Below are positions 2 through 10,058 of a stretch of DNA of 10,367 nucleotides, in pieces. This stretch comes from an uncultured Methylococcaceae bacterium (lineage in GTDB: Bacteria > Pseudomonadota > Gammaproteobacteria > Methylococcales > Methylomonadaceae): contig CAIMDR010000700.1 in NCBI GenBank assembly GCA_903839795.1, forward strand, positions 1 to 10,367. The letters are read 5' to 3'. Position 1 is the stretch's first letter, and each line of letters opens with the position of its first letter. The notes under the pieces were generated by a model, which was not told the origin of the DNA, ran no database searches, and saw only the letters and a list, made by a program, of their open reading frames with translations. The position numbers were made by a program, and so were the translations under genes.

Positions 2-211
2 GAAAATTCATTACATTGGGTGCTGGATGTGACTTTTAGAGAAGATGAATCGCGCATTCGTAAGGGTTACGCACCAGAAAACTTTAATATTTTCCGTCAA
101 CTCGGCATCAATATGCTAAAAAAGGAACCGTCTAAAATGATCATTAAGAAAAAACGCTTTGAAGCCGCGTTGAACGATAAATTCAGGGAGAACGTGGTTT
201 TCCTGGGATGA
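2..211 (+). CDS. ISAs1-family transposase, C-terminal end (partial, cut by window edge)
   Basis: The frame is open from the left edge of the window and ends at a TGA. The first readable residues, ENSLHWVLDVTFREDESR, match the conserved C-terminal block of ISAs1/H-repeat type DDE transposases. The Glu encoded at 2-4 may be the catalytic Glu of the DDE triad, since these proteins carry an IEN-x-LHW motif there. The rest (NIFRQLGINMLKKE, then a basic stretch and a short tail) also fits the normal C-terminus, so the 3' end looks intact. About 70 residues are visible of a protein that usually has 350-400. The enzyme would cut and join its own element's ends. The right terminal repeat should lie shortly after the stop, perhaps at the TTGCCCTG near 225-232, but the left end is outside the window, so the boundary is not fixed. 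Confidence 0.85.
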   Translation, partial: ENSLHWVLDVTFREDESRIRKGYAPENFNIFRQLGINMLKKEPSKMIIKKKRFEAALNDKFRENVVFLG

Positions 212-3009: not shown

Positions 3010-3115
3010 CTATACACAAATCCTGTGGATAACTCTGTGCATTAACTGTTATATACCGCTCTTAACACGCGTTTTTAATACATTCTTGTTAGATTGTACA
3101 AAAAATAGACAATCT
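3010..3115 (+). repeat. DnaA-box module, copy 1
   Basis: The module opens with CTATACACA (3010-3018, one mismatch to the DnaA-box consensus TTATNCACA), a 5-bp spacer, and an inverted perfect box TGTGGATAA (3024-3032). After CTC comes a weaker 9-mer TGTGCATTA (3036-3044). A conserved AT-rich part follows, with AGATTGT (3101-3107) and ACAATCT able to pair near the end. The 91 bp from GTGGATAACT align without gaps to copy 2, 396 bp away, at about 79% identity by my count. Confidence 0.7.
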
Positions 3116-3185
3116 ATTATTCCTGGTTAGTCGCTGTTATTTATGTCATTTCAAGAAATTTTTATGCTTTGAATAAAAGCCGCGC

Positions 3186-3198
3186 CAAGTCATTGATT
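3186..3198 (-). promoter_or_regulatory. IHF consensus site after DnaA module 1
   Basis: CAAGTCATTGATT reads on the minus strand as a full match to the IHF consensus WATCAANNNNTTR. It lies 71 bp past the end of module 1. Binding is inferred from the motif. Confidence 0.5.
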
Positions 3199-3405
3199 TT
3201 TTCTATAGGCAAAAAAACTTCCCGCTTAACACTTGACAAACCTGATGATGCTATAAACCCGCCAAGTTTGCCTCCGTTTTTTTATGCCGTCAAAAGCATC
3301 TCTGTACAAATGCTATTTAACAAAAACACAAGTTATTTTTTCATGGCGGCTTTCGTATAAACAAGAAAAATACTGATTGATGGTTTAAAACAAGCTATTC
3401 AGAAG

Positions 3406-3511
3406 TTACCCACAGAGCCTGTGGATAACTCTGTGTATAAATTGTTATATCCAGCTCTTAAGTACAGTTTTTATTACAGTTTTGTTAAATCGTATAAAAA
3501 CACGACAATCT
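3406..3511 (+). repeat. DnaA-box module, copy 2
   Basis: Same layout as copy 1 with better box matches: TTACCCACA (3406-3414, one mismatch), a 5-bp spacer, inverted perfect box TGTGGATAA (3420-3428), a CTC spacer, then TGTGTATAA (3432-3440), a perfect match to TTATNCACA on the other strand. The boxes keep their spacing while other positions have diverged, which suggests selection on the binding sites. Three boxes in 35 bp would let DnaA molecules bind side by side. Confidence 0.75.
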
Positions 3512-3527
3512 AACAGTTATTTCTAAA

Positions 3528-3540
3528 TATCAATAACTTA
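3528..3540 (+). promoter_or_regulatory. IHF consensus site after DnaA module 2
   Basis: TATCAATAACTTA is a full match to WATCAANNNNTTR, 17 bp after the last base of module 2. A DnaA cluster next to an IHF site is the arrangement of DnaA-titration, inactivation and reactivation loci and of many origins. Confidence 0.55.
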
Positions 3541-3942: not shown

Positions 3943-4174
3943 GGCTACCAACTAAGACGGGGCAGTTTTAGGTTAAGCCGCTCATCCTTCGACAGGCTCT
4001 CAAGAAACAGTTTTTTACTGCATTTAAAATCAATGACTTGCAAGGATATAAAAAAAACAGGAAATTGCTTTAAACAGTGCCTGTTTCTTGGTAACGCCTT
4101 GCCCCGATAAGGGGCTTACCTTGCTCAGGACGAACGGTTAAGTCTCGACTATGTTCCGCGTTAAGTTGGTAGCC
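3943..4174. repeat. Inverted-repeat element B, interrupted by a nested repeat
   Basis: The ends GGCTACCAACT (3943-3953) and AGTTGGTAGCC (4164-4174) are perfect 11-bp inverted repeats, with weaker pairing further in. The left part, running to TTAAGCCG (about 3980), aligns with the left part of element C near scpA, and the right part (GGACGAACGGTTAAG onward) aligns with the right part of element C. A core CCTTCGACAGGCTC at about 3986 belongs to the same repeat type. Between the two halves sits extra sequence that element C lacks, including the segment at 4001-4090. Confidence 0.65.
4001..4090. repeat. Nested 90-bp inverted repeat with an IHF site
   Basis: CAAGAAACAG (4001-4010) and CTGTTTCTTG (4081-4090) are an exact 10-bp inverted pair, with further partial pairing inside (ACTG/TTTAAA against TTTAA/AGT). 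The centre holds AATCAATGACTTG (4028-4040), a full match to the IHF consensus. It interrupts element B and has no coding potential. Confidence 0.55.
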
Positions 4175-6916: not shown

Positions 6917-7048
6917 GGCTACCCACTTAAGGCGGGACAATTTAAAGTTAAGCCGTTCGTGGTGAGCCTTTCGAACCATGAACGACCCTTCGACAAGCTC
7001 AGGGCGAACGGTTAAAACTTGCTGCTTGTCCCGCCTAAAGTGGGTAGC
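6917..7048. repeat. Inverted-repeat element C between scpA and the M50 protease gene
   Basis: The ends, 6918-6940 (GCTACCCACTTAAGGCGGG...) and 7026-7048, form a 23-bp inverted repeat with one mismatch, and CCAATTG-like sequence continues outside both. The core holds GTTCGTGGTGAGCCTTTCGA and CCTTCGACAAGCTCAGG, typical of a widely dispersed proteobacterial repeat. Both halves align with element B at 3943-4174. It is non-coding; an open frame through it encodes the RPELVEG peptide that this repeat type produces by chance. It lies inside what is otherwise one operon and may affect read-through into scpA. Confidence 0.75.
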
Positions 7049-8549: not shown

Positions 8550-8560
8550 TATAATTTTAT

Positions 8561-8588
8561 TCACCACGAAGACACGAAGGACACGAAG
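8561..8588 (+). repeat. CACGAAG repeat, copy 1
   Basis: TCACCACGAAGACACGAAGG followed by ACACGAAG; internally about three ACACGAAG-like units. It is an exact inverted match to 8759-8786 and differs from 10031-10058 at one base. Repeats of this type are scattered between genes in many proteobacteria; their role is not known to me. Confidence 0.85.
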
Positions 8589-8758: not shown

Positions 8759-8786
8759 CTTCGTGTCCTTCGTGTCTTCGTGGTGA
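8759..8786 (-). repeat. CACGAAG repeat, copy 2 (inverted)
   Basis: Exact reverse complement of 8561-8588 over 28 bp. With copy 1 it bounds a 226-bp segment that has no gene, so the pair may be the ends of a small non-autonomous element or two independent insertions. Confidence 0.85.
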
Positions 8787-8852
8787 TTATTTTTTAAGCT
8801 TTTTTGTTGACTTATCTGCATTAATTAGAAGTTACGATAATGACTTTTAAGG

Positions 8853-9998: not shown

Positions 9999-10030
9999 TT
10001 TTTTTGAGCCAGTAAAATTGTAAAGAGCTT

Positions 10031-10058
10031 TCACCACGAAGACACGAAGAACACGAAG
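10031..10058 (+). repeat. CACGAAG repeat, copy 3
   Basis: TCACCACGAAGACACGAAGA followed by ACACGAAG. It differs from copy 1 (8561-8588) by one base, G to A at 10050. It lies just after the two-gene unit, so copies occur on both sides of that unit. Confidence 0.85.

What the first reader, a model, noticed from the sequence alone, without database searches (positions are those of the whole stretch)
3010..3540. Duplicated three-box DnaA cluster, each copy followed by an IHF consensus site
Seen: two gapless copies, 396 bp apart, about 79% identical over 91 bp. Each has a DnaA-like 9-mer, a 5-bp spacer, an inverted perfect TGTGGATAA, a 3-bp spacer and a third 9-mer in the same direction. Box layout is kept while flanks diverge. 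A full WATCAANNNNTTR match lies 71 bp after copy 1 and 17 bp after copy 2. Known: DARS, datA and many origins combine tight DnaA-box clusters with IHF. Inferred: this 1.6-kb gene-free block is a replication-control locus, either regulating DnaA-ATP/ADP or titrating DnaA. No dnaA, mnmG or parAB neighbours are present and no GATC is seen between 3001 and 3540, so a classical oriC is less likely.
Basis: partly seen in the sequence, partly recalled or inferred. Interest (0 to 1): 0.72.

Follow-up and report, generated by a model that had tools for sequence, protein, structure and literature searches.

The report
Tandem DnaA-recharging sites (DARS) in methanotroph
Two side-by-side DNA elements of the kind that recharges the replication starter protein DnaA in E. 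coli lie in a bacterium from a methane-eating family, and the same layout, with predicted docking sites for two helper proteins, recurs in many distant bacteria, so this way of timing DNA copying is probably old and widespread.

Summary
Two 35-bp three-box DnaA clusters (3010-3044, 3406-3440) lie 396 bp apart between fusA and rluB; 200 shuffles give none. Box I (+), 5 bp, box II (-), 3 bp, box III (-) is exactly the geometry of E. coli DARS1 and DARS2. Such modules occur in 33 of 35 genomes of the genus (median 4), 112 of 151 of the order and 122 of 281 of the class; the reversed pattern gives none in these three. With spacers free, 139 of 150 listed class-wide matches are 5/3. Right of box III a fixed layout follows: Fis-type G-N13-C at +51, IHF site near +86 (hold-out). 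E. coli DARS1's arm fits it. IHF-alpha and Fis genes are present. Best reading: a duplicated DARS-type site that reactivates ADP-DnaA; biochemistry untested. Known kind, new arrangement, much wider spread than the passages I read state.

The parts
3010..3018 (+). Copy A, DnaA box I (CTATACACA, 1 mismatch to TTWTNCACA)
3024..3032 (-). Copy A, DnaA box II (TTATCCACA, perfect), 5 bp from box I
3036..3044 (-). Copy A, DnaA box III (TAATGCACA, 1 mismatch), 3 bp from box II
3096..3110 (+). Copy A, Fis-type site GTACAAAAAATAGAC, 6 of 6 consensus positions, offset +51
   Evidence: register conserved in genus, order and class samples
3131..3143 (+). Copy A, place where relatives have the IHF site (offset +86): decayed here, 5 of 9
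3186..3198 (-).
3406..3414 (+). Copy B, DnaA box I (TTACCCACA, 1 mismatch)
3420..3428 (-). Copy B, DnaA box II (TTATCCACA, perfect)
3432..3440 (-). Copy B, DnaA box III (TTATACACA, perfect)
3492..3506 (+). Copy B, Fis-type site GTATAAAAACACGAC, G-N13-C kept, 4 of 6 consensus positions, offset +51
3528..3540 (+). Copy B, IHF site TATCAATAACTTA, 9 of 9, offset +87, at the conserved place and orientation

Best explanation
The block holds two tandem DARS-type (DnaA-reactivating) elements. Each is about 135 bp: a core in which boxes I and II hold two ADP-DnaA molecules head to head and box III a third, then a right arm with a Fis site at +51 and an IHF site near +86. Inferred mechanism, by analogy with E. 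coli: IHF bends the arm back onto the DnaA complex with help from Fis, ADP leaves DnaA, apo-DnaA is released and binds ATP, and the ATP-DnaA pool for the next initiation rises. Copy B is the IHF-responsive copy (DARS2-like); copy A has kept core and Fis site but lost the in-register IHF site and may work as a DARS1-like basal site. Shown here: geometry, register, conservation, an old duplication, presence of IHF-alpha and Fis genes. Not shown: binding, ADP release, effect on initiation.
For: Same orientation and 5/3 spacers as the E. coli DARS1 and DARS2 cores; the DARS2 core was checked against a published deletion primer that begins right after it (PMC4585315), and DARS structure against PMC5742627. 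139 of 150 listed class-wide free-spacer matches are 5/3. Genus, counted by hand: box II-III spacer 3 bp in 85 of 94 matches (some of these are at dnaA), box I-II spacer 5 bp in 105 of 144 (palindromic sites count on both strands; the reversed pattern gives 22 there). All 60 modules tested (58 of the 131 matches, plus 2 in L089) avoid ORFs of 150 aa or more, which cover 76% of those loci. G-N13-C at +51 in 98% of 59, 90% of 21 (order) and 65% of 20 (class) modules, mean over offsets 3-4%; IHF 8/9 or better near +86 in 80, 86 and 60%. Hold-out of 40: G51...C65 in 24, IHF 7/9 or better at +84 to +87 in 33, both in 20. E. coli DARS1's arm: 2 of 52,970 E. coli offsets reach its score, itself one of them, and 0 of 20,000 shuffles. 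Copies A of six genomes form one group, copies B another. IHF-alpha over cut-off in 31 of 35 and a Fis relative in 35 of 35 genomes, own genome included.
Against: No biochemistry. Copy A lacks the in-register IHF site; copy B's Fis site meets 4 of 6 positions. The order of sites differs from E. coli DARS2, whose essential Fis sites lie beyond IHF. Genomes without a module at the thresholds used: 2 of 35, 39 of 151, 159 of 281. Positions are spread and biased to the origin (median 0.20 of the half chromosome), although the homologous pair in one closed genome is at 0.51-0.52. IHF-alpha was not found in 3 of 35 genomes, among them G020, which carries the same tandem pair (950 contigs); IHF-beta was not searched.
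Confidence: 0.8

Rival explanations
1. The clusters are plain DnaA titration sites: they bind and hold DnaA and so delay initiation, without changing its nucleotide.
For: Consensus boxes; modules are enriched near dnaA (17 of 52 within a tenth of the half chromosome); E. coli shows origin-proximal box density and titration, with DARS and datA as part of it (PMC12371093, passages).
Against: Titration needs no fixed 5/3 geometry and no Fis and IHF sites at fixed offsets; both recur across the class. Titration may still be a side effect.
Confidence: 0.1
2. A DnaA- and IHF-controlled promoter region: the cluster regulates fusA (or neighbours) with the cell cycle.
For: Copy A lies 363-384 bp upstream of fusA in 10 of 12 loci compared.
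Against: The same element lies beside unrelated genes (hrpA, priA, ExoI, ssb-zapE and others, each gene named from one representative), 77 of 80 fusA loci show none, and the right arm points away from fusA.
Confidence: 0.05
3. A datA-like site that hydrolyses DnaA-bound ATP.
For: DnaA cluster plus IHF.
Against: In the E. coli datA stretch scanned (L186:2600-3000) boxes are 58, 153 and 3 bp apart, with no 5/3 triplet; over all of L186 the best match to the module has 6 mismatches.
Confidence: 0.03
4. A mobile or generic repeat that happens to carry DnaA boxes.
For: Up to 9 copies in some genomes, several near-identical or clustered (G017, G019; G147).
Against: Median 4 per genome; the priA and hrpA-fusA places recur in several genomes; right arms diverge except at a few positions; the A/B split is shared by six genomes. 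Element ends and target duplications were not searched for.
Confidence: 0.02

Closest known systems
E. coli DARS2 (rppH-mutH region)
   Same: Core of three boxes with the same orientations and 5/3 spacers; an IHF site on the right arm in the same orientation (8/9 matches at +58, inverted, and +74, 3 bp apart as published for IBS1-2); needs IHF and Fis, of which IHF-alpha and Fis are encoded in the window's genome.
   Different: IHF site about one helical turn further out (+86); the Fis-type site lies between core and IHF (+51), whereas the essential Fis sites FBS2-3 of DARS2 lie beyond IHF (exact consensus at +110); DARS2 has no G-N13-C at +51; here two elements in tandem.
E. coli DARS1 (bioD-uvrB)
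   Same: Core geometry identical; its right arm has G-N13-C at +51 (one of five such offsets in the first 100) and a 7/9 IHF-like stretch at +86, and as a whole fits the class profile.
   Different: It lacks the full Fis consensus at +51; by the passages seen DARS1 does not need the extract that DARS2 needs in vitro; the two E. coli loci are far apart, not in tandem.
datA and oriC
   Same: DnaA boxes with an IHF site.
   Different: Different box orientations and spacings; the own genome's box array at dnaA is on another contig.

Membership tests
DARS (DnaA-reactivating sequence) | Three DnaA boxes, box I opposite to II and III | tested here: met
   definition from PMC5742627 (passage)
DARS (DnaA-reactivating sequence) | Same box spacing as DARS1 and DARS2 (5 and 3 bp) | tested here: met
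DARS (DnaA-reactivating sequence) | Non-coding locus | tested here: met
DARS (DnaA-reactivating sequence) | Distinct from oriC | tested here: met
   dnaA with 11 boxes is on contig C681, window on C700; the distance between them is unknown
DARS (DnaA-reactivating sequence) | Stimulates ADP release from DnaA | not testable with these tools
   needs purified proteins
DARS2-type (IHF/Fis-activated) | IHF site at a fixed distance from the core | tested here: met
   copy B met (9/9 at +87); copy A not met (5/9 at +86)
DARS2-type (IHF/Fis-activated) | Fis site in register | tested here: inconclusive
   copy A 6/6, copy B 4/6 with G-N13-C kept; the place differs from E. coli FBS2-3
DARS2-type (IHF/Fis-activated) | IHF and Fis encoded in the genome | tested here: met
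   G000:C62 IHF-alpha, G000:C2 Fis relative, 42% identity; IHF-beta not searched
DARS2-type (IHF/Fis-activated) | Conserved mid-arm chromosome position | tested here: inconclusive
   own genome in 748 contigs; homologous pair at 0.51-0.52 in G011, other modules spread
datA | datA box layout | tested here: not met
oriC | dnaA/dnaN or mnmG neighbourhood | tested here: not met
   (one unnamed ORF and two ORFs without a family match remain)

The most novel reading that the evidence does not exclude
DARS is an ancestral replication-control element of Gammaproteobacteria (and of at least one family outside that class), with one unified layout, core - Fis(+51) - IHF(+86), often in several copies per genome; E. 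coli DARS1 is a member whose helper sites have decayed and DARS2 one whose arm was rewired, and some lineages such as this one run tandem pairs whose copies have specialised.
Probability: 0.6. Interest if true: 0.78.

Novelty: new variant of a known kind. Interest (0 to 1): 0.62.

Why it matters
The passages I read treat DARS as an E. coli system kept in close relatives. A sequence signature that finds DARS-type elements in non-model bacteria would let DnaA recharging, and the balance between the switch and titration models, be tested outside enterics. It would also account for the accessory arm of DARS1, whose role in vivo is described as undetermined (PMC5742627, passage).

Tried and rejected
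oriC: rejected, no dnaA or mnmG named in the window, and a box array sits beside dnaA on another contig. RNA: no Rfam match at gathering scores. Core alone as proof outside the class: rejected. Of 20 modules from other classes (picked by hand), the seven of families f178 and f182 (L294-L300) have arm scores of -25 to -53, near the E. coli null mean of -40; the 12 of f174 (L301-L312) score -19 to 11 and the one of f184 (L293) 13; G51...C65 is in 7 of the 20 and IHF 7/9 in 12. Scanning the whole E. coli chromosome for further cores was not possible.

Limits: class modules for the arm test were 20 + 40 picked by hand from the part of the list that one search printed (the list was cut), closed or long contigs favoured in the first 20; some come from the same family or genus. 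The group called genus (60 modules, 59 with enough flank) is 58 of the 131 matches plus 2 of L089. GC skew of G011 rests on 23 stretches, about 9% of the chromosome, and one (1.68 Mb) has the opposite sign. One search used 29 of the 42 genomes (13 dropped, mostly for many contigs); module lists were cut, lengths are exact for some and rounded for others, and one further G201 module seen only was left out.

Full report
What is there. The window is contig C700 of a 748-contig genome; the nearest named record found is an uncultured Methylococcaceae genome with 99% identical fusA (L074). Genes: fusA (EF-G, TIGR00484), rluB, scpB, an scpA-like ORF (below the cut-offs), an unnamed 218-aa ORF, an L-threonylcarbamoyladenylate synthase and two ORFs without a family match. 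Between fusA and rluB are two direct copies, 396 bp apart, 79% identical over 102 nt, each with three DnaA boxes in the order + - - and spacers of 5 and 3 bp. The pattern occurs in none of 200 shuffles.

It is the DARS core. The same scan on E. coli MG1655 stretches finds TTATCCACT-5-TGTGGATAA-3-TGTGTATTA between bioD and uvrB (DARS1) and TTATTCACC-5-TGTGGATAG-3-TGTGAAGAA between rppH and ygdT-mutH (DARS2), with the same geometry. That the second is the DARS2 core is borne out by a published deletion primer that starts with the bases right after it (PMC4585315, passage); the place of DARS1 is recalled, not read. PMC5742627 (passages) states that DARS1 and DARS2 share three boxes with equal spacing and box I inverted, and that head-to-head DnaA contacts at I and II are a mark of DARS.

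It is common and not a generic repeat. At up to 2 mismatches the core occurs in 33 of 35 genomes of the genus (own genome counted), 0 to 9 per genome, median 4 (read); at up to 1 mismatch in 112 of 151 genomes of the order and 122 of 281 of the class, 97 of 218 genera. The reversed pattern gives no match in these three searches. With both spacers free from 0 to 12, 113 of 187 class genomes match, with one reversed-pattern match, and 139 of the 150 listed matches (the list was cut) are 5/3; five of the other 11 are second readings of a 5/3 site. In the phylum sample 75 of 249 genomes match, many of them in the class; outside it hits are mostly in families f174, f178 and f182, and the right arms support f174 and the single module of f184, not f178 and f182. 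All 60 modules tested avoid ORFs of 150 aa or more. Neighbours vary: hrpA-fusA, priA and a dsbB-like gene, ExoI, ssb-zapE and others.

The right arm. Modules were chosen by the core only. Past box III, information is concentrated at certain positions and ends near +100; upstream of box I only the last two or three bases stand out, in the genus and order. G-N13-C at +51, the outer G and C of the Fis consensus GnnYAnnnnnTRnnC quoted in PMC8682772, is found in 98% of 59 genus, 90% of 21 order and 65% of 20 class modules, against a mean of 3-4% over offsets; the full consensus is at +51 in 37, 38 and 40% and at no other offset above 5%. An IHF consensus (8/9 or better) lies near +86 in one orientation in 80, 86 and 60%. 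In 40 further class modules fetched after these features were fixed, 24 have G51...C65 (mean over offsets 4%), 33 have IHF 7/9 or better at +84 to +87 (mean about 5% for a 3-offset window), 20 have both.

E. coli under the same lens. In DARS2 the IHF matches are at +58 (inverted) and +74, 3 bp apart, which agrees with the IBS1-IBS2 spacing in PMC4245941; the second is in the same orientation as here, about one helical turn nearer the core. That paper reports that moving the IHF sites outward by 10 bp keeps more activity than moving them by 5; moved inward, both 5 and 10 bp were only partly active. DARS1's right arm has G51...C65, without the rest of the Fis consensus, and a 7/9 IHF-like stretch at +86. 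Under a profile from 54 class arms, none above 45% identical to it, 2 of 52,970 E. coli offsets reach its score (itself one of them) and 0 of 20,000 shuffles. DARS2 scores lower (55 of 52,970 offsets; 213 of 20,000 shuffles); of the eight shifts tried, its Fis and IHF blocks score best at -11 bp, but the G-N13-C mark is not there.

The two copies. Copy B has the IHF site in place (3528-3540, 9/9) and a weaker Fis site (4/6). Copy A has a full Fis site (3096-3110) and no IHF site at the conserved place (5/9). In a tree of 28 elements the copies A of six genomes form one group; the copies B of the same six form another that also takes in G005's module and the two ExoI-locus modules; G010's copies do not follow this, and no support values were printed. 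In G011 and G002 the two lie about 8 kb apart between hrpA and fusA; in five genomes one module lies between hrpA and fusA (hrpA named from one representative). So the pair looks older than these species and both members were kept.

Position. In closed relative G011 GC skew changes sign around dnaA (1.15 Mb) and between 3.12 and 3.36 Mb, with one stretch at 1.68 Mb against the trend. Its modules are at 0.06, 0.51, 0.52 and 0.99 of the half chromosome; the middle two are the hrpA-fusA pair. Over 52 modules in 29 closed or nearly closed genomes the median is 0.20, 17 lie within 0.1, KS p 5e-5, median p 0.0017 with one per genome. So there is an origin bias but no single address.

Partners. IHF-alpha passes the family cut-off in 31 of 35 genomes and a relative of E. 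coli Fis is found in 35 of 35, the own genome included. G020, which has the same tandem pair, shows no IHF-alpha (950 contigs). IHF-beta, DiaA and Hda were not searched as such.

Literature. PMC4245941 says the DARS2 core, like Fis, is conserved specifically among gammaproteobacteria related to E. coli; PMC5742627 says E. coli-proximal beta- or gammaproteobacteria (passages only). My searches, judged by titles and abstract starts, listed no paper on DARS in methanotrophs or on a class-wide layout; the library is open-access only, and the original 2009 DARS paper was not seen.

Results against the reading. Beside fusA the module is kept only in a subgroup: 3 of 80 fusA loci, one of them the same record as L057, had one at up to 4 mismatches. 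Many genomes have none at the thresholds used. The site order differs from DARS2. No function was measured.

Noticed in passing
window 8558-8588, 8759-8789, 10030-10058: Repeated CACGAAGACACGAAG stretches, direct and inverted, outside the block; looks like a dispersed intergenic repeat.
   Followed up: no
window 3948-3983 and 6923-6958: Repeat of 36 nt, 78% identical, one copy inside the same 1.6-kb gap, near stretches such as TTCGACAAGCTCAGG seen.
   Followed up: no
window 2-211: C-terminal piece of an ISAs1-family transposase, below the family cut-off, at the contig edge.
   Followed up: no
L045 (G017:C103) 4774-12559; G019; G147: Local amplification of modules: 4 within 8 kb in G017, and 9 matches each in G019 (up to 2 mismatches) and G147 (up to 1).
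   Followed up: no
L060 5056-13050, L063 4941-13057: In G011 and G002 about 8 kb with several genes sits between module B and module A, which are neighbours in the window.
   Followed up: partly
L301-L312 (family f174) and L293 (f184), other classes of the phylum: Cores with 5/3 spacing whose right arms score well under the class profile; the organisms are unnamed.
   Followed up: partly
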